Positions 5,880 through 58,300 of a stretch of 64,000 nt of DNA are shown here, in pieces (the stretch's first letter is position 1; each line of letters opens with the position of its first letter). A program made the translations under genes and the position numbers. The notes below the pieces were generated by a model. It saw only the letters and a program-made list of their open reading frames with translations. It ran no database searches and was not told the origin of the DNA. Source of the DNA: Sipunculus nudus (Eukaryota; Annelida; Sipuncula; Golfingiida; Sipunculidae); the NCBI GenBank assembly GCA_026874595.1, contig CM049319.1:62132917-62196916 (forward strand), written 5' to 3'.

Positions 5880-8110
5880 ATATTAGCATGGATGTCTGCA
5901 GTGTAAACGTGAATGTAGGTGGTGCCACCTGTCATAAAATCGAGAAAATTGTCCAGGATGTATAAACCTGCAATTTTTCAGGTGGATAAGTAAAACCACT
6001 GCTGAGATATGAGTGATTTTATCCCAAGGCAGATGAACAGATGGATGCTGTGCATAAATGGTTGCAGGTGGCACCACCAGTTTTGCCTACAATGAAGAGC
6101 TGTGGGGGAGATCTATACACATGCAAAATTTTGGCCCAATCGGTCAAATGGTTCCCGAGATATGAGCTTGGATGTCTGCAGAGTAAATGTGAATGTAGGT
6201 GGCGCCACCTGTCATAAAATAGAGAAAGCTTTTCAGTAGTATAAACCTGCAACATTTCAGGTGGATATGTCAAACCACTGCTCAGATATGAGTGTTTTTA
6301 TCCCAAGGCAGATGAACAGATGGATGCTGTGCATAAATGGTTGCAGATGGCGCCATTGGTTTTGCCTATGATGAAGAGCGGTGTGAGATCTATACACATG
6401 CAAAATTTTTGCCCAATCGGTCAAATGGTTCCCGAGATATGAGCTTGGATGTCTGCAGAGTAAACATGAATGTAGGTGGTGCCACCTGTCATAAAATCGA
6501 AAAAGCTTTCCAGGATGTTATAACCTGCAAAAAATTTTATTAGGAAAAGTCAAACCACTGCTGAGATATGAGTGATATTATCCCAAGGCAGATGAACAGA
6601 TGAATGCTGTGCATAAATGGTTGCAGATGGCGCCACCAGTTTTGCCTAAAATGAAGAGCTATGTGAAATCTATACACATACAAACTTTTGGTCCAATCTG
6701 TCAAACGGTTCTCGAGATATGAGCTTGGATGTCTGCAGAGTAAACCTGAATGTAGGTGGCGCCACCTGTCATAAAATCAAGAAAGCTTTCCAGGATGTAT
6801 AAACCTGCAAAATTATAGGTGGATATGTCAAACCACTGCTGAGATATGAGTGATATTATCCCAAGACAGATGGACGCTGTGCATAAATGGTTGCAGGTGG
6901 CGCCACTAGTTTTGCCTATGATGAAGAGCTGTGTGAGATCTATACACATGCAAAATTTTGGCCCAATCGGTCAAACGGTTCCCGAGATGTGAGCTTGGAT
7001 GTCTGCAGAGTAAGCCTGAATGTAGGTGGCCCCACCTGTCATAAAATCAAGAGAGCTGTCCAGGATGTATAAACCTGCAAAATTTCAGGTGGATCAGTCA
7101 AACCACTGCTGAGATATGAGTGATTTTATCTCAAGGCAGATGAACAGATGGACTCTGTGCATAAATGGTTGCAGGTGGCACCACCAGTTTTGCCTATAAT
7201 GAAGAGCTATGTGAAATCTATACACATACAAACTTTTGGTCCAATCGGTCAAACGGTTCCCGAGATATGAGCTTGGATGTCTGCAGAGTAAACCTGAATG
7301 TAGGTGGCGCCACCTCTCATAAAATCGAGAAAGCTTTCCAGGATGTATAAACCTGCAAAATTTCAGGTGGTTATGTCAAACCACTGCTGAGATATGCGTG
7401 ATATTATCCCAAGGCAGATGAACAGATGGACGTTGTGCATTAATGGTAGCAGGTGGTACCATCAGTTTTTCCTATGATGAAGAGCTATATGAGATCGATA
7501 CACATACAAAATTTTGGCCCAATCGGTCAAACGGTTCCCAGGAAATGAGCTTGGATGTCTGCAGAGTAAATGTGTATGTAGGTGGGGCCACCTGTCATAA
7601 ATTAGGGAAAGCTGTCCAGGATGTATAAACCTGCAAAATTTCAGGTGGACAAGTCAAACCACTGATTAGATATGATAGATTTTATCCCAAGGCAGATGAA
7701 CAGATGGGTGCTGTGCATTAATTGGTGCAGGTGGCGCCACCAGTTGCCTATAATGAAGAGCTATGTGAGATCTATACACATGCAAATTTTGGCCCAATCG
7801 GTCAAACAGTTTCCGAGATATTAGCTTGGATGGCTGCAGAGTGAACCTGAATGTAGGTGGCGCCACCTGTCACAAAATCGAGAAAGCTGTCTAGGATGTA
7901 TAAACCTGCAAAATTTCAGGTGGATAAGTCAAACCACTGCAGAGATATGAGTGATTGTATCCCAAGGTAGATGAACAGATGGACGCTGTGCATAAGTAGT
8001 TGCAGGTGGCGCCACCAATTTTGCCTATGATGAAGAGCTATGTAAGATCTATACACGTGCAAAAGTTTGGCCCAATCGGCAAACGGTTCCGGAGATATGT
8101 GGGTTTATGT
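5880..8110. repeat. Tandem array, eight ~278-bp units, each with GGTGGCGCCACC palindromes
   Basis: The motif 'gtaggtggcgccacct' or a close variant starts at about 5918, 6198, 6475, 6755, 7025, 7303, 7581 and 7856, giving spacings of 270-280 bp. A second palindrome copy sits ~148 bp into each unit in the context 'caggtggcgccaccag'. Similar 61-codon frames recur in some units, but 278 is not a multiple of three and the frames are opened and closed by unit-specific mutations, so coding is not inferred. Confidence 0.9.
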
Positions 8111-40300: not shown

Positions 40301-43300
40301 GTATCTGAACTCATTAATTTCAATGTATCTCTCTCAAGTTACAAATAATCATAGGAATTAATGCTGCTAATTTTTGCAGGAAACAAAATCTGTGGAAGAC
40401 TGGGATGAAGCCATTAGTGGAGTCAAGGTAACCGTGACCAAACCACAGAAGAAAGAAGAAGTGAAGAAACGAGAAGCAGAGAAGAGGACCGAAAAGGTAA
40501 ACTAAAACTTTCATGTGTTTATAATATCTTGCATTTATAAAAATAGGAAAGGTAATATATCCTGTTGAATTAAAAAGAAAGGGTAAATATTTTGCATTGA
40601 TAAAACAGAAAAGATAAAATAACTTGTCTAATTAAAAAGAAAAGGTAAAATATCTTGCGTTAATAAAAGAGGTAAGTTGAAATATCCTGTGTTAATAAAA
40701 CAGAAAAGGTAAAAAATCTTGTCTAAATAAAAAAAGGTAAAATATTGTGCATAAATAAAACAGGGAAGGTAAAATATCCTGTGTTAATAAAACAGAAAAG
40801 CTAAATATCCTGTGTTAATAAAATAGATAACATAAAATATCCTGTGTGTTAAAAAACAGGAAAGGTAAATATCCTGTGTTAATAAAATAGAAAAGATAAA
40901 ATATCTTATGTTAATAAAACTGAAAAGGTAAAATATTCTTTGTTAATAAAACAGAAAAGGTGAAAAATCTTGTCTAAATGAAAAAAAGGTAAAATATTGT
41001 GCATAAATAAGGCAGGGAAGGTAAAATATCCTGTGTTAATAAAACAGAAAAGGTAAATATCCTGTGTTAATAAAAGAGAAAAGCTAAATATCCTGTGTTA
41101 ATCAAACAGATAACATAAAATATCCTGTGTAAATAAAACAAAAAAGGTAAAATACACTGTGTTAATAAAACAGAAAAGGTAAAATACACTGTGTTAATAA
41201 AACAGAAAAGGTAAAATAGCTTGTGTTAATAAAACAGAAAAGGTAAAATAGCTTGTGTTAATAAAACAGAAAAGCTAAATATCCTGTGTTAATAAAATAG
41301 ATAACATAAAATATCCTGTGTGTTAAAAAACAGGAAAGGTAAATATCCTGTGTTAATAAAATAGAAAAGATAAAATATCTTATGTTAATAAAACTGAAAA
41401 GGTAAAATATTCTTTGTTAATAAAACAGAAAAGGTAAAAAATCTTGTCTAAATGAAAAAAAGGTAAAATATTGTGCATAAATAAGGCAGGGAAGGTAAAA
41501 TATCCTGTGTTAATAAAACAGAAAAGCTAAATATCCTGTGTTAATAAAAGAGAAAAGCTAAATATCCTGTGTTAATCAAACAGATAACATAAAATATCCT
41601 GTGTTAATAAAACAGAAAAGGTAAAATACACTGTGTTAATAAAACAGAAAAGGTAAAATACACTGTGTTAATAAAACAGAAAAGGTAAAATAGCTTGTGT
41701 TAATAAAACAGAAAAGGTAAAATAGCTTGTGTTAATAAAACAGAAAAGGTAAAATAGCTTGTGTTAATAAAACAGAAAAGCTAAATATCCTGTGTTAATA
41801 AAATAGATAACATAAAATATCCTGTGTGTTAAAAAACAGGAAAGGTAAATATCCTGTGTTAATAAAATAGAAAAGATAAAATATCTTATGTTAATAAAAC
41901 TGAAAAGGTAAAATATTCTTTGTTAATAAAACAGAAAAGGTGAAAAATCTTGTCTAAATGAAAAAAAGGTAAAATATTGTGCATAAATAAGGCAGGGAAG
42001 GTAAAATATCCTGTGTTAATAAAACAGAAAAGGTAAATATCCTGTGTTAATAAAAGAGAAAAGCTAAATATCCTGTGTTAATCAAACAGATAAGCTGAAT
42101 ATCCTGTGTTAATAAATCATAAGGTAACATTTCCTATGTGAGTAGAATGGAAATTGTAAAATATTGTGCATAAATAAAACAGGGAAGGTAAAATATCCTG
42201 TGTTAATAAAACAGAAAAGGTAAAATACCCTGTGTTAATAAAACAGAAAAGGTAAAATACACTGTGTTAATAAAACAGAAAAGGTAAAATACACTGTGTT
42301 AATAAAACAGAATAGGTAAAATAGCTTGTGTTAATAAAACAGAAAAGCTAAATATCCTGTGTTAATCAAACGGATAACATAAAATATCCTGTGTTAATAA
42401 AACAAAAAAGGTAAATATCCTGTGTCAATAAAACAGAAAAGGTAAATATCCTGTGTCAATAAAACAGAAAAGGTAAATATCATGTGTTAATCAAACAGAT
42501 AACATAAAATATCCTGTGTTAATAAAACAGAAAAGCTAAATATCCTGTGTTAATCAAACAGATAACATAAAATATCCTGTGTTAATAAAACAGAAAAGGT
42601 AAATATCCTGTGTCAATAAAACAGAAAAGGTAAATATCCTGTGTCAATAAAACAGAAAAGGTAAATATCCTGTGTTAATAAAACAGAAAAGCTAAATATC
42701 CTGTGTTAATCAAACAGATAACATAAAATATCCTGTGTTAATAAAACAGAAAAGGTAAATATCCTGTGTCAATAAAACAGAAAAGGTAAATATCATGTGT
42801 TAATAAAACAGAAAAGGTAAAATACACTGTGTTAATAAAACAGAAAAGGGAAAATAGCTTGTGTGAATAAATCATAAGGTAAAATATCCTGTGTTTATAG
42901 AATTGAAATTGTAAAATATCCGTTGTTAAGAAAACAGAAAAGGATAAAATATCCTGTGTTAATAAAACAGAAAAGTTAAAAACACATGTACACTGTGTTA
43001 ATAAAACAGAAAAGGGAAAATAACTTGTGTGAATAAATCATAAGGTAAAATATCCTGTGTTTATAGAATTAAAATTGTAAAATATCTGTTGTTAAGAAAA
43101 CAGAAAAGGTAAAATACACTGTGTTAATTAAACAGAAAAGGTAAAATACATGGTGTTAATAAATCATTAGGTAAAATATCCTGCCTGGGCTTTAGTGTAT
43201 TTACGTTTACTACTAAAATGCTTAAAATAAAACGTTTTTCCATGTACCGATAGACGTAACTCAGTCCCAGCTCTTATCACTAAAGCCCTGTTAAGTCCGT

Positions 43301-46300
43301 GATATTTGAATATTAGGGCGTCACAAGGCTCCTGACGATTCCCTCGCATTTGCATATCGGGCCGTCATGCCTCTTGTGAATGGCATTGTTGCTATGTGGA
43401 GGCTAGCAGCGGTCAAAATGGCAATAGACAGCTCAACCCGCTTGGTAACATTTGCACTGAAATCATATTTACAGAAAGTCCATACATGGACCTCCGTGTC
43501 CTATGATATATCTCTGCTGTTGAACACTAAGGCCCATGGGCCAAATGTAAGTGCATTGTAGACACTGTCACATCTATTTTGTACAGTGTATTTGTTAGTG
43601 TTCAAGTTACACTTGAAAGTCCTGCCCCTGTTAAGTTGCCAACAAGCTGATCGTTTCAGCCAGCCGGTTCGCGTGTGGACCTGAATATCTCATGCTGATT
43701 GGCTTAGCTAGAGATACATTTTCAAACCGGCCTGCCTTGAAAAGCGTTGGTCTGATAAACGGTGACACTCTGACTCACTGAGGCTGAGGGTTATATTTAG
43801 TGTTAAAAAATCTTGCCGTACTCAAAATAGCCGAGGAATATAAAATATTAAGACTGATTAAATGGGTATATAAATAGCAAGCTAGAAGCCCACAATAGGC
43901 GGTTACTGGATAACCAATGTTGGTTAAAAAAAAGATTTTGGGAAAGACCACTTTAATTACTCTGTACGTCACTTGGAAAGACCTAAGTTCAGCCAGGTGG
44001 TGATGTATGGCGCTGACTGTCCGGTACGGCCCAAGTTTACCAGTTGATGAAATAAGAGGGTCAGCGAGTGGTAATTAGTTAACGAGAGGTGGCGATACCG
44101 ACACTATACGTGCGATACAGTGAGAAAACGTTTGGTTTCTCTGTCAGAGGCAACAATTAAGAGCCATTTCATTGACTGGGCCAGTCTATATCCTGTGTTA
44201 ATAGAATGGAAATTATAAAATACCCAGGTTTATAAATATAATGAAAAAGAAGAAACATCTAGTGTTATTTAAATAAAAAAGTATAAATTTCCTGCATTAG
44301 TTGATTATTTGTGTAGGGGTGTATTCTTAGACTCATTGCTCATATCGATTCATTGCATTTATTATTTTTCTGTTGCCTTTCAGATAAAACTTGACTTGGA
44401 TGAACCTCCAACAGAACCTGCCCTGAAAAAGCTGAAACTTGAAGCCCCAAAGTCACGATCAAGGTCACCATCACCAGCTCCACCTAGTGACAGAGAAAAA
44501 GACAAATACAAGGAGAAAAAGATCAAAGAGAAAATAAAAGAGAAAGAAGTTAAAAAAGAGGTTGGTGTATTAAAAACTGGTTTTATTACGTAAACATAAT
44601 TGTGAGCTGTTTCTGTATTAATGAGAATTTTCTCTGTTAAAGTTTATACGCCAGAGTAAGCCAACCGAAAATTTTCCCTTATTGGGCCTATTATCGCCCA
44701 TCCCGCCTCGTTCCCGTGTATCTAGGTCACACTTCCGTTACCCATAATCACATTTTCTTCTGGCGTACGCCATGATGGACGTGTGATCCCGCTCTGCGAG
44801 ATTCGTCCACTGTTGGGTTTGTACTAATGAGTTTGCCAACTGAACTGTAAGTTGTCTTCTTTTTCCTTTGCCCGCCATGGAGAACCCCACTTCTTGTGGC
44901 TCTTGTCTTCTTAATCCCGGTTGGAACTCCCACCCCACTTGTTTTCGTTGCCGCTCCAACAATGACTCCTGCCGTGTTCCGGCTGTTCCTTGTTTTCACT
45001 GCCTGACTTGGACGTCTGACCAGTGGGCCCTTTCCCGGATTGGGCTCATTCCCCGGTACTTGGGGGTTCACCCTCCTGTATTCCATTGTCTGGCCCCGTG
45101 GTTGTCTCCGAGGGGGTGGGGGGGGGGGGGCCTACCCTGGTTGACCGCACCACGGCCGTGCTGCGTTCACCGTCTGTTCCCGCCGGTCCTGTCACCTCTC
45201 CAGTGGTTTAGACAGTTATATCGTTGAATTCTCATTCATGGAAACGGAATTCTTTCCCCGTTCCCGCGGCCTCCCGTTCTGCCAGCACATCTGCCTATTC
45301 CATATTACATTTATTGTCCCGGGTTTGTTAATCACTTATGTCGGATCTCGACGATTCGTCTAGACCCGATTCTGTCCGCCCGGCGCCCTCGCCCGCGCCC
45401 CGGTACTTTCTCCCCGGCCGTTCTCGTCGCCGGCTCCTCGCCGGATTCCTTCCTTATCCCCGGGGCCGGCTGAAGCCGTCCCGCTGGATCCCCCGGACCT
45501 TCCTGGTGTGCAGGTAAGTGCGTCGGTCCCTACTGCCTCCATTCGGGGCTGCCGGCCTCGCCTCCGGTTCCTGTGCCTTCCCGGCTGGTTCCTGCTGCTG
45601 CTCGTTCCCTGGCTTCCTGTTTCCAGCCTCCCGTGGCTCCGGCTCAGCGGGTCTCTCTGGCTCCCCCTACCCGGGGTTCTCCAGGGTCCCCGACTGCTCA
45701 GTCAGATGATCCCGCCCTGGCATCAGACCAGTGGTCGGCGATCGCGCTGCGCCGCCAGGCTTGGTGTCCGCGCAAATCTGCTCAGTCAGCCGATCCCGCC
45801 CTGTCATCAGACCAGTGGTCGGCGATCGCGCTGCACCGCCAGGCTTGGCGTACGCGCAAATCTGCGCTTATGGACCTAGGGGCTACCTCCACACAGGAGG
45901 CTAACCCTAGTGGTCTGAAGTTCCGTTGGTACAACCTCGGACTTCCTCGGCGTCGGCGGCCGGTTCTTAATTGAATCCTGGCCCCTTCCATCGCCCTCCG
46001 CAGCACCCGCCGTGTGTCTGGGATTACAGACCACCCGGGGGATCTCTTACGTGGGCCCCACGCGGTGGTCTCGGGTTCTCGCTCTACTGGGGCCCCGCTT
46101 CCACCGGGTTCGGTTACACCTTGGTCCCCCGGTACCCTCGGGGAGTCCCCTGGGTTCCAGGCTACCTGTTGGTTCGCTTGCTCCCTTCTCCTGAGCTCCC
46201 GGATGTTCAGTCTGCTCCGCTGCGCCTCGTGTCCGGCCTGGCTCAGCCGTTTGCGGACGGTAAGTCTTTATTACCATCCTCTGTCCAGTTCCGATCGTCC

Positions 46301-49300
46301 CCTGTCGGATCTGGAGGGGCTCGGCCGGTATGGTTAACGACTTGCAGGCTGTCACTAGCTTGCTCGCCGTTTCTCCGGACACGCTCACTCTCCACGCCTT
46401 ATGGCAGGCTTCTGCCCATACTGGCGCTGAGTTTATTCAGGTCGTTGGCTCCCGGTTGAAAAATTGCATTCTGTCATTTAAGCACTTACAGCCAATGCTT
46501 CTCAGGCGGAGTTGTCCGAGCTTTATTCTCCGCCTTTACCGGTTCCCTGCTGTTTGGCGGCCAATTACGGCCTCTCTTTGACCACACCTTGGCGCGCTCG
46601 GATCGTCTGGCCTGCCTCCGCTCAACCTCTCTTGTGCCTCGGCCTTCCTTCCACGATCCTCCCGTTTCGGAGCGGGTTGCGGCTTTCGCTCAGCCGCGTC
46701 GCGCATCTGCTCTCTCTTCACGTCCTTCCGGACATTCCAGCCGTTCTCCACCTTTTTGTGGTCGATCCTCCATCCGAGGTTCGACCAAGAATTGCCTCTC
46801 TAGCTCCGATCGGCGCTCGGCTCAGCGACCGTTTTCCCGCGTGGGCGGGTTTCACCTCACAGCGGTTCATTCTCGGCGCCCTACAGTTCGGGTTCCCTCT
46901 TCTGTTTAGCCCGCTCCGCCTCCGTCCGTTCCGGCATTACGCCTCGCATGGCGGAGGCCATTCAATCTATGTTCGACAAACGGGCAATTTCGAGGTTTCC
47001 CCATCCACCGTGGGGTTTCACTCTCGCCTTTTCTTGTTCCCGAACCGCACGGCCGTTGGCGCCCGATCATAGACCTGTAGTGCCTCAATTTGTTCATCCG
47101 TGCGCCCCCGTTTCGGATGTTCATTATCCATGCTGTGCTCCGCATTGTTCGGCGGATGGATTGGGCGTTCAAAAATAGACCTTACGGATGCCTTATTCCC
47201 GTTTCCATTCCGGGTCCATCCGTTCGGGATCCACGTGGCCCCTGGATTTTACCATACTTGTTCACGCGGTCCCGTGTTTTCCCCGTTCACCTGGCATTTC
47301 TGTGCTCCCTTATCTGGACGATGGCTTGTCCTTGGGCCGCTTTGCATCGCATCGCTCCCGGGTTCTCATCTTACTTCGGAACCTCGGTTTCCTGGTCATT
47401 GCGGCGAAATCTCTTCTCACTCCCACCCAGTCCCTCCGATTTCTGGGTGTCACGCTGGCTTTGGCGTCCGGCACAGCATCGCTCCCGCGCGATTTTACTC
47501 TCCCGCTCCGCCGCCTGATTCGTTCCTTTCTCACGAGGCACCGTGTAGACTCGCGCCCTGCGGCTTCTCTCCCCGGTGCTCTCAACCGGGCCGCGTCTTT
47601 CATCCCGTTCGGCCGCCTGTACCTGCGTCCGATTCAGTCTATCTTGCGCCGTCACGGCCTTCTCCGGTTAACCTCAGTTCGTCCTACGATCCTCCCGTTT
47701 CGGCGCACCTGGCGGTCCCTTCGTCCCTGAATGGACCTTTCCTGTCTCCTGCGCGGCATTCCTTTTTCCAGGGGTGTCGCTTGCACCGTCTATACCGAGG
47801 CGTCTCTCCTCGGTTGGGGGGCCCATCTCGCCGATCTTCGCGCTTCCGGGATTTGGTCCCCGTCGGAACGTCTGCTCCCTATCACAATCCTCGAACTGCG
47901 TGCCGTCCGTCGCGTGATCTCCCACTGGTCTCCCGCTTGATCGGACATCACATTCTCATCCGGACCCACAATACCACGGTTGTGGCATATATCTACAGGC
48001 AGGGCGGTACTCGGTCTCCCTCGCTCATGCAGGAGACTTACCTTTTGTTCGATCTATGCCTCTCTCTCCGGGCTTCAGTTCGTGCATCCCATCTTCCGGG
48101 CGTGTCGAACATCCTAGCGGACGTCCTTTCCCGTCATCCGGCGTCTCTTCCTTCCCCACCGCTCCTTCCACTCCTTCTTCGGAGTGTTTTCGCTCGCCTG
48201 GGGTGGCCGGAATTCGATCTGTTCGATTTTCCGTCCCCCCCCGCTCTCGTGCCTTCCGAGACGCGTCTACGTCACCCTCGCGACCGTCTCCCCGACACGC
48301 CGCCGTCCGGGTGGTCTCACCGGTTTCTCTTTGCGTTTCCGGCGCCTCCGCTCATCCGCCGTGTCCTTCTCCGCTTGTCCCGCGCGGACCAGACTACCCT
48401 GCTTCTCATCCTTCCGTTTCATCCTGCGGCTCCATGGTTTCCTCTGTGGCGCTCGCTTCTCTCTCGCCCCCCGCTTATCCTACCGCTCCACATTGCGCTC
48501 CCGTCGTTCCCTCGAGCGCGGCGCCCGTTTCGGTCGTGCCCTCTATGCACATGCGTGCTCTCATCGGACACCTCAAGGATCAGGGCATTTCAAGTCCGGC
48601 TGCTCTCCTTGCCTCGGCTCCCCGTCGCCGTTCTTGGGACCGCATCTACGACTCCCGGTGGCGTCTCTTCACGGAGTGGGCGTCTTCCCGCGGCATCTCC
48701 CCTTTAGATCCGTCGCTTGCGGCTGTTTTGGATTTTTCGTGTTCTTACTACCGGATCAACATTTATCCTATCCCTCTCTGCGTGGCTATCGCGCCGCCCT
48801 GCTGTCGGTGCTCCGTCCGCTGGGTCACGCTCGTGTCCTTCATCCCCGTTGGTGTCGGACTTTCTCCAGGGGGTTCATGCCCGTGCGTCTAGTCCACGGT
48901 ATGTTGCGTCTTCCTGGTGCCTGGACATCGTCTTAAGTCACCTCCGGGAACCCCCTTATAAGCCGTTGCGTTCGGCCCATCTTCTCCATTTGTCTCGGAA
49001 AACGGTTTTTCCTCCTTGCTCTTGCCTCGGCTGGTCGCCATTCTGAGCTTCATGCCCTCGTCGCTGATTCGTACTTCACGCAATTTGCGGCCGACGGTTC
49101 GTCGGCCACTCTACATTTTCTGCCGGATTTTTATAGGAAATATCACAATTTCGATGACCCCCGTCTGCTTGGCACGTTCCGGCCCTCCCTACCGGTCAGT
49201 ACTGTTATGGGGCTACCAATTGCCCGGTTCGTGCGTTGCGTTATTATCTACCCGCTCCTCCTTCTTTACGGGGGAAGTTGTTTATTTCTACAAAAGTCAC

Positions 49301-52300
49301 ATCTTCCAATTCGGTGATTAGCCCTTTCACCATTAGTGCGTGACTCAAGCTCCTATCGTCGCCGCATATGAATCAGCTTCTCATTCCACATTAGACCAAC
49401 TTCACTTCAAGGCCCATGACATTCGAGCTATTTCAACTTCCTTGGCCCATTTCTCCAGGATCTCACCTAATCCGTTGGTCCAGATGGGATACTGGATCTC
49501 CCCATCTCCATTCACACGCTTCTATCTGACTGTTGTTCCGCTCCAGGCTTCGGGCCTCTCCTCCATGGGCCCTGTGTTCACGTCGGGTGCGGTCCTACAC
49601 TTTTCCAGGCCATCTTCTTCCTCTCCGTCGGTTCCGCCACCGACGTCGTCCGCTGCTCCTTCACAGCACTGTGATTCCTCGTTCCAGCGTTACAGGTAGG
49701 TGCTCCCTCCCCAAGGCATGTCTGTTTTTTTTTCATTAATACAGAAACAGCTCACAATTATGTTTACGTAATAAAACCCCCCCATTCCCTCCCTGTGAAT
49801 GGTGGTTTTGTTAGTAAACTGTTGTGAGCTTTTCTGTATTACAAACATCGCTCCCTCCCAGTCCTCTTCCTTACGCCTTCGAAAATGTGATTATGGGTAA
49901 CGGAAGTGTGACCTAGATACACGGGAACGAGGCGGGATGGGCGATAATAGGCCCAATAAGGGAAAATTTTCGGTTGGCTTACTCTGGCGTATAAACTTTA
50001 ACAGAGAAAATTCTCATTAATACAGAAAAGCTCACAACAGTTTACTAACAAAACCACCATTCACAGGGAGGGAATGGGGGGGTTTTGGCGTATATGTATT
50101 TGTAACTCAGATTACAAAGTAGCCTCTTTTCTGAGGGTTTGCATAGAAGGTAGTGTAGTGGTTAAGATGTTAGGCTTAGACCAGGAGGTGACTGGTTCAG
50201 TCCCCACCTATGCCATAAATGGCAGCAACATGAAATCTCGATGAAATCTCATAGATTCTCTCAAATGTCTTAACAACAGGTTTTGACTTCTGGTTTCTTC
50301 TAAGCTCCTTGCGTAGAGGACCAGAATCTGAAAGGCTTAATAACATTTAATTCTTGTCATAAAGTGGCCCCTGGTGTAACCCCAGATTAATTGGTAACCT
50401 GTTGTTAAGGACTGTCTTTGCCTTGCACTAAACAGTTTTACAGTTAAAATGTACCTTGACAGGTGCATAGGTGTTCACCTGTCTATGCAACAACTTACTA
50501 CTGAAAGAAACAGTCAATTTGCCTGCTTTGTAAGACCATTTGCTAAACAAACTGACCGCTACCTGAGTACTTGTGCAAAAGAAAGCAAAACCAGACTGAT
50601 AATGGCACCTGTTTGCTGTTTTTTGCACAGTCAGCTCTGACCATTTGGACTAGAAGTCACATCACACAAAACTGCCTTGTGTTTCAGGCTGCTGGTCACA
50701 GGTTTTGCACAGAAGTGAGCTGAGTTCCGCACACAGTGCTCCTGGCAGCCCCTGATATGCCTGCTACAGCCGTATGAAATGGCAAATTACAGTGACAATT
50801 GACTAACATGGACAGTCTACTTACACTTCATATTGAAAAATGTTGGTGAATAACATACTTAGATAAAACAAAGATCTTTTTTCAAAGATTAATGTATCAG
50901 AATATAAATATAATTAAATAGTGTCCAATATGAGGACACAAACCCTATGCTGAAGATAGTGATGTCGAAGTTAAATAAAACCTGTGTTATTCCTGGGAAC
51001 TTTTAAACTGAATATTTTGAAAAAAAACCTAATAAAATAAATACAATTTTGATCAGATTATTTTGTTATGTATTACTTTTACCTGTTTAGCAAAAAAAAT
51101 GTTGTGATTAAAATGCTTTTCCTTGATCATATGACCTTTTTATAGAAAACACAAAAAAAAATTTTTTTAAAGTTTAGACCACAGGGCTTAAAGCCTGGAA
51201 AATGTGAGTTTCCAATCTCAGCCAAGGCAATGTGATTTTTCTCCACCCAGGGAGAGCACTCTGCAGGCTAAATGGTGAGACTGTGCCCAACAGTTTTGTT
51301 TCACTCACAGTGTTCACCTTAGGGCATTCCTTGGTATTATGACCTAGCAAGGAGGATGACTCACAGCCAGAACTTGCAGAAGTGGTACACTGAGCCTGAT
51401 TGATGCCAGGATAATCAATTTTAAGCCCCTGTCATGTAGTCAGAAACTGCAAAGGAATTCTATTGATGTACTTAGTACTTAGTTAAGCAAGCATTAAAAA
51501 AGGAGGGGGTTACCCCAACACACATTTAAAAAAAAAAACTTGGTAATATTTTTCCATACAAAGTGAGTTGATTGTCCATGTCAGTCAGTTTGTCACCATT
51601 TCCCTACCATACTCTAACGAACATAATGGGCATATCAGTGGCCACCACATGGCACAATGTTTGTCTGGTTAGTTGATTTGTTAGTGGCCAACTTTACTTA
51701 ATTTTTTTAGGAGAACTTTGATCTTGCTGTAATTTTTGACCATTATAATTGCTTCTGGTAGAGAAAAGAACTGTTAAATAATTGTTTTCATTGAATTGTT
51801 CATTGTTCAGTGAAGTAATATATACACAACTTTCAGGTTAAGAAGGAAGTAATAGAGGAGCCGAGCTCAGAGAGTGATGACGACACAGAGAGTAACCATG
51901 ACGATGAAATGGCAACTGATGAGTTTGCCATGGATATGGGAATCACATGTGTCGTCTGCAAGTGAGTACTTCATAGTAATTTTATCTTTTGCCATACCAT
52001 CTTTGGCCTAAGATAATCCACCTCCTCTGATTATCTACATCAGAACCACAATTTTTGGAGAACATCTTATAACCCTGAGTATAATATGCACCCTGTTTCA
52101 TTCCAAAATACTGCTATTGCTTGTAGCGCCATCTGACAACTGACAGTGGAATCAAATAATTTCAGCAGGACCATGTGATTGTGCATATTTCAGTTTGCAT
52201 ATCATTCATTCTCTGGAGTTGAAAGCTATATTAAAGGTGTATATTAATAATTATTTAAAATTGAAGTAATTAATAAGATTAAACTTAATGTTATCTATTT

Positions 52301-55300: not shown

Positions 55301-58300
55301 GCATCAGTCGCCTGACTACATCATACCAACTCATGATGCCTTCCGGCTGTTCACACAAAGTCCACAGAGTTACGTTGTATTAACATTTGGGTTGTACTGT
55401 GCCCTGCTGCTAAGGTCAGCTCTATCAGGCTTGAAGATAATCTTTTAATAATCTTTGGAAGGTTGAAATCAGTAATCTTTGATGGTCCCCAGGCTGCCCA
55501 CATCTGTGTGGAAAAACAAGCTGCAGGGAAAACTGCATATTTACACACTGGTTACCCCCAACACATATTGTTGCTATGACAACAGTAAGAGCAGGGGAAT
55601 TTACCATTCTTAGAATATGTGACGACTGCAACTTAATTGCATTAATATACCTGTGAAATTCCAGGAGAGGCCCTTGTAACTATTGATGTTCCTGGAAAGT
55701 ACACTTGGTTCATTGAAATGGCAACAGATGGCACTACCTGTCTGCCTCCCCTTTATTAGTCCAGTTGGGAAAGTAACAGTCACAGAAGCAACCTCAAGCA
55801 CAGGGTTAAGATCTGTTGTGCAATGACAGATTAAAGCATGTTTGACCTGACATTTGATGTAGTCACTGTCCAACTTGCATGGTCAGTAAATGTGAACAAC
55901 ATTTGACTGTTTATCCCTTGGCACTCATTTCTTTTGTCAGGATGCAATAATGGTTAATCCCCCTATTCATCCAAATAATCCCTTCACATAATGTTGAAAT
56001 GACCACTATAACCTTGCATTTACATCTTCAACTGACAACAATGGATATTACATTAAAAAAAGTTACTAAGCTTTGGCAATATATAAAATAATAATATATA
56101 TATAAAATTCTCAGACAAGTACCTTCTGTTGATTATATTTGGGATGGATGTTGTTAAATATATGCTCAGTATTTGCTCCATTTACTTATTTTTTTGCGAT
56201 TTGTAAAGTAGCTCGATTTTGATGTTAAAGCATGCTGTTCTAATGAATATTGGCAATAGGTCTGTCCTTGACATTCATATATATTCTGTGTGGAGAATGT
56301 CACAGAACCATAAGTAGATATATATTTTGCCCACAGATGGCAGCACCTGTTCTGGGTGTTTCATTGAAGAATACTTGGCTGTATTTATTTTCCCAGGATA
56401 ACATCTACAAAAGTCCTGAAGTCTAGACCTTTTTTGTATAATTTTAGAAATAAATTCTGATACTAATCTATTTTACCTGGAATTTTGTTGTTTTTGCAGT
56501 CAGTCAAGGCCATGAAAAATCATGAAAATGAAACCCTTGTGAAACACTAAAAAAAGTGAAAATCATGAATATTTAACCTCGTGAATATGAAACAAATCAC
56601 TGTATATAAAATGCATCTACATTAACTATGTGTGCACAGTACTTATCAGTAGCACAAAAATCATATCTGATTTCATCAGAATTTGTAAAAAAAATACATG
56701 TAAAAGGTGAGGAAATTTGATGTGTCAATCCATGTGTTAAAAGATTACATACAGCTTTTTAATATCACTTTGTTCTTTTTATTCAGGAGTGTCATAGGCC
56801 TCCGGTTACTGAGCCAAATGTGAATGACCCACGTTTTGTCTGGTACTGTTACAAGTGTACCAAGAATATGAAGAAAATGGTGAGTACAGTTTATCACAGT
56901 AAATCAAATGTTGCTATGTCATACATCATCAGTGTTTTGTTTTATTTCCGGGACTGTGTATTCACTTATAGAGTTAGGACATAGCCTAGTGGTTTTCACA
57001 TTTGACTTTGAATCTAAAGGTCCATGTTTTGTCGCAGCAAGAGTTGTGAAGGCTGAATGGTGAAATATTAACAGATAGATTGAATGTCATACTGTAATAA
57101 TTAACCTAACCACCACAGCCCTTAAGCTTTGCTTGTTTGACCTAGTTATGCTAATGAGCCCCAAAAACACTCCTTCACAGAAAGATTCCCAAACGTATGG
57201 TTGTGCTATGTGTGCTCTTTATAAGACTATAGTGACATCACATTGATGTCACCAAAGTCATTCGCATATGACGTTGCATGGACTTACGTCATCAGCTTGA
57301 GTTGCTATTTCTGTGTTCTCCATTGATGAATATGTCGCAATCATTGTAAAGTGTTTTGCCATATTTTGGGTTATGTCTCATAAGAATTCAGTGCAAGGTA
57401 AGACATTATTATTCACTCGGCAATCAGTGACACAGCTCCTTCAACCTTGGGCCTAGAAATTTTTATACTGTCTCCTTTGTATTAAAAATATCCTGGTAAA
57501 TATCTCTGTTTGGGAGAGTCGCCTAAATATATCAAATTTTGCGCTTTGTCACATGATTGACTGTTTACATTACCAATAGTAGCTTGATTGGTTGCTCGCA
57601 GTTATTCTGCTTATGATTATTCATTGAATGAACATGCAATTAAGGTCACATAGAGTTCATGGTTAGGACAATTTAGTCTCTAAATTTGATTATCTGACAT
57701 CCAGTCTTAATAGGGTACAATAAATGTCTTAATAATTATGTCTCCCCTCCCATGGTGAAGACATACAGTGTTGTGTCTGTGGTCATGGTAGTCTGTCAGT
57801 GGTGGCAGTGTCTGTGTCATTTCTTGTGAACATGATGACCTTTGAACGGCTCAATATTTTTTTCATGAAATTTTGAATTTAAATTGTTTCTACCAATATC
57901 TCAGACAAGTTCTAAAACTGGTGACCTTGACCTTCATCATCAAGGTTAAATGGGCCAAAATTAAAAACTTTTTTGTAAACCCCAAGCTTTTTTGAAGTAT
58001 TGCAACAGAAAAGGTATGGTTTTCAGGCACTTTTTCAGATATCAGTGTGGGCGGGCAATATTTTTTTTTCTTTATGTTTCTATAAAAATGTTTTATGATC
58101 AGGGACAAGCATGATTTTTTTTGCTAAACAGGTGAAAACACTACATTTCAAATGAAATCTAATCAAAATTATATTGTTTTATCTTCTTGAAAGATGAGAA
58201 TCAAAATAAAATGGGTTAAAATTGACACAGGCCTATCGCTTATTCTTTCCTGAAATGAGAAGCACTTATTGTTTGAACCTAATTCTTTGAACCGTTCAGA

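What the first reader, a model, noticed from the sequence alone, without database searches (positions are those of the whole stretch)
44581..50084. GC-rich DIRS retrotransposon inside INTS12 with every structural landmark readable
The inverted termini, Cys-rich ORF1 head, RT (YLDD), RNase H, methyltransferase-like stretch, tyrosine recombinase (HDIR...FYL) and internal complementary region are all present in the canonical order. The element is sharply GC-rich against an AT-rich host, which suggests a distinct mutational history or fairly recent arrival despite the broken frames.
Basis: partly seen in the sequence, partly recalled or inferred. Interest (0 to 1): 0.75.

Follow-up and report, generated by a model that had tools for sequence, protein, structure and literature searches.

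The report
Adenine-losing DIRS retrotransposon inside INTS12
A jumping element of a known kind (DIRS) sits in an intron of the INTS12 gene; comparison of its sister copies suggests that broken copies keep spreading with help from intact ones while their A letters turn, on one strand only, into C or T.

Summary
In detail: a DIRS1-like retrotransposon (about 44580-50086) lies in an INTS12 intron, with identical 148-nt inverted repeats and an internal region complementary to both outer ends. An open-frame relative has a clear reverse transcriptase (RVT_1, 4.3e-24). GC-richness alone does not show recent arrival: DIRS are reported as the GC-richest TEs of fish (PMC6909575, passages).

The unexpected part is how copies differ. 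Termini differ by 0.9-2.6%, coding bodies by 4.4-10.5%, with little sign of codon constraint. Copies at different loci share inactivating substitutions and frame-shifting indels, so broken copies were mobilised in trans. Body changes are dominated by sense-strand A>C and A>T: A>C 57/347 columns against T>G 12/831. Against open copies, 20 of the window's 24 changes in a 333-nt recombinase piece are A>C or A>T, none A>G; an RT piece agrees. The changes form a nested ladder, and A>C is favoured before C.

I infer adenine-directed error at reverse transcription. A control on another retroelement family and an enzyme test are missing.

The parts
44580..44757 (+). left terminus: divergent outer part 44580-44609, conserved inverted repeat 44610-44757
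   Evidence: left end reads GTTTTATTA in all 19 left junctions listed
44758..44876 (+). 5' untranslated stretch, nearly unchanged between copies
   Evidence: 17 substitutions/kb between copies; A>Y at 1 of 16 A columns against 8 A>Y entries over 15 A columns in the next 150 nt
44877..46900 (+). relic of ORF1 (gag-like), frames broken; starts at an ATG
   Evidence: no Pfam family over cut-off
45694..45861 (+). 84-nt tandem duplication, two copies, 93% alike
46950..47727 (+). relic of the reverse transcriptase, YLDD near 47311, one in-frame TGA after 47727
   Evidence: RVT_1 in an open-frame relative; RT piece aligned
47731..48141 (+). relic of RNase H
   Evidence: weak RT_RNaseH match in the relative
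48142..48700 (+). stretch called methyltransferase-like; overlaps the recombinase frame in an open relative
   Evidence: resemblance only; no Pfam match; overlapping frames
48700..49699 (+). relic of the tyrosine recombinase; R near 49039, HDIR near 49415, FYL near 49520
49730..49841 (+). internal complementary region: left part matches the left end, right part the right end, overlapping in AAAACC
49881..50028 (+). right conserved inverted repeat
   Evidence: 148 nt, 100% complementary
50029..50086 (+). right outer part and extension, ending GGGGGGGTTTT
44381..44561 (+). INTS12 exon just upstream; the element starts about 20 nt after its likely splice donor
   Evidence: frame read; splice site by eye (inference)
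56784..56879 (+). INTS12 PHD-finger exon

Best explanation
It is a DIRS1-like retrotransposon that was probably already broken when it inserted, recently, into an INTS12 intron. It belongs to lineages that no longer code but keep their cis-acting ends, and that are copied and integrated by proteins of open-frame relatives in the same genome. During copying, adenines of the sense strand are misread, most likely when the sense RNA is copied into first-strand cDNA and a purine is put opposite A, giving A>C and A>T. In coding copies selection keeps the needed adenines; in broken copies the body loses them step by step; the termini stay nearly unchanged because they are needed in cis. This pressure can account for the A-poor sense strand. 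Shown: anatomy; sharing of broken states between loci; strand-specific A>C and A>T; its inheritance through copying. Inferred: that it happens at reverse transcription, and that the element's enzyme rather than a host factor causes it.
For: Anatomy; RT. Recent insertion: ITR arms 0/148 different; 0-5 substitutions in 15 of 20 copies measurable. Broken lineages replicated: four A columns invariant in six open copies are changed in 17 to 19 of 19 other copies (one of the four has 18 readable, all changed); 34 frame-shifting indels in the body are shared by two or more copies. Open and broken copies both occur among the 3' ends that are 99% identical to the window's (that list is the best 40 of 1246, so it is chosen for likeness); in copies chosen by body likeness the ends still differ only 0.9-2.6% against 4.4-10.5% in the body. 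Signature in gap-free non-CpG columns: A>C 57/347 vs T>G 12/831 (p 4e-21), A>T 37/347 vs T>A 30/831 (p 6e-6); C>T/G>A, C>A/G>T, C>G/G>C and A>G/T>C do not differ. Polarised by open copies: recombinase A>C 31/72 vs T>G 2/90 and A>T 21/72 vs T>A 7/90 columns; RT A>C 16/33 vs T>G 3/92. Nested, inherited ladder. 19 of 21 copies have more A>Y than T>R per site. Body vs ends: A>Y 94/347 vs 5/117. Third codon positions of mostly open copies: A>C 9/32 vs T>G 7/112, p 0.0017. Neighbour: A>C before C 83/160 vs before A or T 67/201; the C/T choice follows the 3' neighbour (p 0.001), not the 5' (p 0.86). Equilibrium A from this spectrum 0.118, observed 0.123.
Against: The same spectrum predicts T 0.505 and G 0.115, but the body has 0.285 and 0.241: only A fits well. 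Against one open copy directly, A>G is also high in the gag-side and RT regions (11.8% and 10.1%). RT A>T vs T>A is not significant alone (p 0.10). A protein-guided count on open copies showed little asymmetry (third positions A>C 8/24 vs T>G 24/101); I set it aside because its upstream part mixed reading frames (422 columns for 320 codons), and recounted on DNA alignments, where C>A is also high (19/72). Recombinase third positions are somewhat more variable (pi 0.088 vs 0.061 and 0.067), but that set held some open copies. The only control elsewhere is a tandem array of 8 units (A>C 2/61 vs T>G 5/54); no other retroelement family was tested. No link to predicted RNA pairing (p 0.20). T changes also resemble both neighbours. 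Several 'broken' copies keep long RT-side frames (up to 709 aa), as A-poor DNA has few stops. Near-constant ends may mean selection or a body-limited process.
Confidence: 0.65

Rival explanations
1. A host defence or RNA modification (for example a methylated or lost adenine in the element's RNA) makes the reverse transcriptase misread A; the enzyme itself is ordinary.
For: The same strand-specific A>C and A>T would result, since a purine is placed opposite an unreadable A.
Against: No preference for predicted unpaired adenines. Mostly open copies show the A>C bias at third positions too, so it does not single out broken copies. It does not exclude this rival.
Confidence: 0.25
2. The changes arise in the DNA after insertion, by a transcription-linked or other strand-biased process.
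For: Many are private to one copy, and CpG decay after insertion is plain in the same copies.
Against: Shared nested changes at different loci were inherited through copying. Ends of the same copies lack the signature: A>Y 5/117 vs 94/347.
Confidence: 0.05
3. Selection, not mutation, removes adenines: pyrimidine-rich RNA is copied, packaged or expressed better.
For: Shared changes look like successful lineages.
Against: Private, recent changes have the same bias, and the choice of C or T follows the 3' neighbour, as a copying error would.
Confidence: 0.08
4. An artefact of alignment, majority polarity or assembly errors.
For: The body is GC-rich and has homopolymers and indels; polarity is by majority.
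Against: Gap-free columns only; complement changes in the same columns are symmetric; polarity from open copies gives the same in two coding regions; the same changes recur at different loci.
Confidence: 0.03

Closest known systems
DIRS1-like retrotransposons, e.g. GaDIRS1, TnDIRS1a, SkoDIRS2 (Table 3 of PMC3266345; sections 3 and 10 read)
   Same: GTT start, conserved inverted repeat of 142-148 nt, longer right end, two-part internal complementary region; RT-side and recombinase frames overlap by about 2 kb in an open relative, as listed for GaDIRS1 and TnDIRS1a (SkoDIRS2 is listed without overlap)
   Different: The right end is followed by TTT in 33 of 43 right junctions, by ATTT in 6 and TTC in 4. 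The adenine-losing pattern is not described in the sections I read.
Diversity-generating retroelements of bacteria (PMC12875486, passages)
   Same: Errors at template adenines; the error giving A>C is favoured when the 3' neighbour is C
   Different: In those cells C misincorporation (A>G) predominates at 59%; here A>G is the rarest A change. No template/variable repeat pair or target gene was looked for here.
APOBEC (G>A) and ADAR (A>G) editing of retroelements (spectra recalled; APOBEC G>A also in PMC9099904 passages)
   Same: Strand-biased changes on one strand of a retroelement
   Different: Here A>C and A>T; C>T and G>A are balanced and A>G is not in excess over T>C.
Non-autonomous retroelements mobilised in trans (e.g. 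Dasheng/RIRE2; title seen only in a reference list)
   Same: Ends kept, coding capacity lost, coding relatives present
   Different: Here most of the coding length remains as a relic that loses adenines.
Frog L2 elements rich in C and T on the sense strand (PMC9099904, passages)
   Same: Pyrimidine-rich sense strand in a retroelement
   Different: A LINE; the passages I saw leave the cause of such strand biases open.

Membership tests
DIRS1-like retrotransposon | inverted terminal repeats | tested here: met
   148 nt, 100% complementary
DIRS1-like retrotransposon | internal complementary region matching both outer ends with a short overlap | tested here: met
DIRS1-like retrotransposon | reverse transcriptase and RNase H of the Ty3/retroviral kind | tested here: met
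   open-frame relative: RVT_1 4.3e-24, PDB matches to Ty3 and retroviral RTs; the RNase H profile stays below cut-off
DIRS1-like retrotransposon | methyltransferase domain | tested here: inconclusive
   resemblance only; no Pfam match
DIRS1-like retrotransposon | tyrosine recombinase at the 3' side | tested here: inconclusive
   R, HxxR, W and Y conserved across 10 aligned relatives; no Pfam match, no PDB profile match
DIRS1-like retrotransposon | integration without target-site duplication at a short core | tested here: inconclusive
   19 left and 43 right junctions listed; no empty site examined
DIRS1-like retrotransposon | RT and recombinase grouping with DIRS rather than Ngaro or PAT | not testable with these tools
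   no reference sequences held; split direct repeats, which mark Ngaro and PAT, were not reported
Diversity-generating retroelement | adenine-specific errors of its reverse transcriptase | tested here: inconclusive
   adenine-biased changes seen; the enzyme was not tested
Diversity-generating retroelement | template repeat, variable repeat and target gene | not tested
   no dedicated search made
APOBEC- or ADAR-type hypermutation | excess of G>A or of A>G on the sense strand | tested here: not met
   C>T 55/685 vs G>A 29/416, p 0.56; A>G 13/347 vs T>C 19/831, p 0.17

The most novel reading that the evidence does not exclude
A eukaryotic tyrosine-recombinase retrotransposon whose own reverse transcriptase is systematically unfaithful at template adenines, partly by slipping onto the base it has just copied, as proposed for bacterial diversity-generating retroelements. 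Over time this sets the base composition of the family and could explain why DIRS elements stand out as GC-rich.
Probability: 0.3. Interest if true: 0.85.

Novelty: new variant of a known kind. Interest (0 to 1): 0.55.

Why it matters
Why transposable elements have odd, strand-biased base compositions is an open question in the review I saw in passages (PMC9099904), which thinks error-prone reverse transcriptase an unlikely major cause of AT-richness. Here one family shows a strand-specific, inherited A>C and A>T pressure, whose predicted A content matches the observed one (0.118 vs 0.123). If it comes from the enzyme, it is an adenine-unfaithful reverse transcriptase in an animal retrotransposon, testable in a tube. 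The ladder of changes also offers a clock for how long a broken lineage has been carried by its helpers.

Tried and rejected
Reading GC-richness as a sign of foreign or recent origin: rejected. CpG decay as the cause of the body/end contrast: rejected, since non-CpG diversity is 0.048 in the body and 0.0087 in the ends, while CpG columns differ little (0.113 vs 0.077). APOBEC or ADAR editing: spectrum does not fit. RNA pairing of mutated adenines: no significant relation. A tRNA-like repeat at 50130-50340 as control family: too old (other copies 70-86% identical). A 32-nt satellite as control: the script found one unit and no result. Pfam on the window's own pieces: nothing above cut-off. PDB profile search with the recombinase: nothing. 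One search stopped with an error part-way and was redone with other pieces. One search mixed reading frames and was replaced. Rows dropped: body piece 45380-45629 had no usable copy, 45477-45626 likewise. The 42 'other' copies include six with open frames that fell below my 88% identity line, and four more with few changes. One search used 29 relatives, three of which (of those checked) had given no long recombinase frame.

Literature: nine searches. None of the listed titles or abstract starts describes adenine-to-pyrimidine change in DIRS; two searches found no paper at all, one unrelated; (36 papers; 17) only 15 and 10 were listed. So 'not in print' is limited to those listings.
Full report
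What is there. The window (position 62132917-62196916 of contig 14 of an unnamed 1.43-Gb genome) holds a DIRS1-like retrotransposon at about 44580-50086, in the same direction as INTS12, about 20 nt behind an exon. Its 148-nt inverted repeats are identical, and the internal complementary region 49730-49841 matches both outer ends. In the terms of PMC3266345 (sections 3 and 10 read) this is the standard DIRS1-like plan. The left end reads GTTTTATTA in all 19 left junctions listed; the right end's G run is followed by TTT in 33 of 43, ATTT in 6 and TTC in 4. In two fetched loci one element is joined directly to the end of another. INTS12 is supported by a PHD-finger exon.

The frames of this copy are broken, and Pfam finds nothing in its pieces. 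A relative with open frames has a 729-aa frame with reverse transcriptase (RVT_1, 4.3e-24) and a weak RNase H, overlapping a 992-aa frame that ends in the recombinase. Recombinase membership rests on conserved motif residues only.

Copies that were fetched. Twenty were chosen for body likeness and thirty for 3'-end likeness (which scored 40 of 1246 candidates). Among copies chosen by body, the ends, 5' stretch and internal complementary region differ by 0.9-2.6% and the body by 4.4-10.5%, with more indels. Within a copy, the two repeat arms differ by 0-5 substitutions in 148 (15 of 20 measurable; 0 in the window copy), so insertions are young and much of the body divergence is older than the insertions. 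Codon positions are nearly equally variable. Frames are fragmented: among the window copy and 20 others, only two have HxxR in a frame of at least 150 aa and five have YLDD in one, although some keep RT-side frames of up to 709 aa.

Broken copies multiply. Thirty-four frame-shifting indels of the body are shared by two or more copies. In an RT piece, four adenine columns that are invariant in six open copies are changed in nearly all of the 19 other copies. Open and broken copies occur together among the 99%-identical 3' ends. The simplest reading is that open copies supply the proteins and broken ones keep the ends those proteins recognise.

The signature. In gap-free non-CpG columns of the body, single-copy changes are A>C 57 and A>T 37 of 347 A columns, A>G 13, against T>G 12, T>A 30 and T>C 19 of 831 T columns. 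A>C/T>G and A>T/T>A differ strongly (p 4e-21, 6e-6); the other complement pairs do not. With a wider set, A>C is seen in 159 and A>T in 118 of 409 A columns of the body, against 4 and 5 of 153 in the ends. Polarised by 20 open copies, a 333-nt recombinase piece has A>C in 31, A>T in 21 and A>G in 12 of 72 A columns, against T>G 2, T>A 7 and T>C 8 of 90 T columns; the window copy has 24 changes, 11 A>C and 9 A>T. The RT piece gives A>C 16 and A>T 6 of 33 A columns, against T>G 3 and T>A 7 of 92.

Inheritance. The recombinase changes form a nested ladder: one group carries about 1 to 6 A>Y changes, a second about 10, a third about 15 to 17, and the window copy 20, mostly with the same new base at the same column. 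So the changes were passed on through copying. Among mostly open copies, third codon positions show A>C 9/32 against T>G 7/112, which suggests that the pressure also acts there while selection keeps the needed adenines.

Mechanism. Strand-specificity plus inheritance through copying point to the RNA or first-strand stage. A>C and A>T both mean a purine opposite A. A>C is favoured before C (83/160 vs 67/201 before A or T), and the C/T choice follows the 3' neighbour (p 0.001) but not the 5' one (p 0.86). For an enzyme copying the sense RNA, the 3' neighbour is the base just copied, and PMC12875486 (passages) proposes such slippage for a bacterial adenine-unfaithful reverse transcriptase in the same context. 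That enzyme, however, gives mostly A>G in cells, unlike here. Predicted RNA pairing does not matter. The A content expected from the spectrum (0.118) fits the body (0.123), while T and G do not.

Limits. The only control outside the element is a small tandem array. The host was not identified, so the fish comparison is a comparison only. Whether the ends escape mutation or are kept by selection is open.

Noticed in passing
window 45694-45861: 84-nt tandem duplication in the ORF1 relic, two units 93% alike
   Followed up: no
window 40540-43183: Purine-rich, GC-poor satellite of a 32-nt unit, about 84 copies
   Followed up: no
window 5880-8099: 278-nt tandem array of about 8 units; used as a small control for strand asymmetry
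   Followed up: partly
window 50130-50340: Old tRNA-like repeat next to the element; other scored copies 70-86% identical
   Followed up: partly
L013 and L021: One DIRS element joined directly to the right end of another, as expected if circles insert at element ends
   Followed up: no
relatives L060-L079, recombinase stretch: A run of G codons before the conserved recombinase core varies in length between copies
   Followed up: no
window body vs right flank: CpG observed/expected is 1.04 in the element body and 0.18 in the right flank (0.63 in the left), with many C>T and G>A changes at CpG columns between copies
   Followed up: partly
genome contigs C60, C61, C62, C66, C72, C74, C75, C89: Nine full COX1 matches with frames of 577-578 aa and no internal stop on eight small contigs; these look bacterial, which would suggest symbiont or contaminant genomes in the assembly
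   Followed up: no
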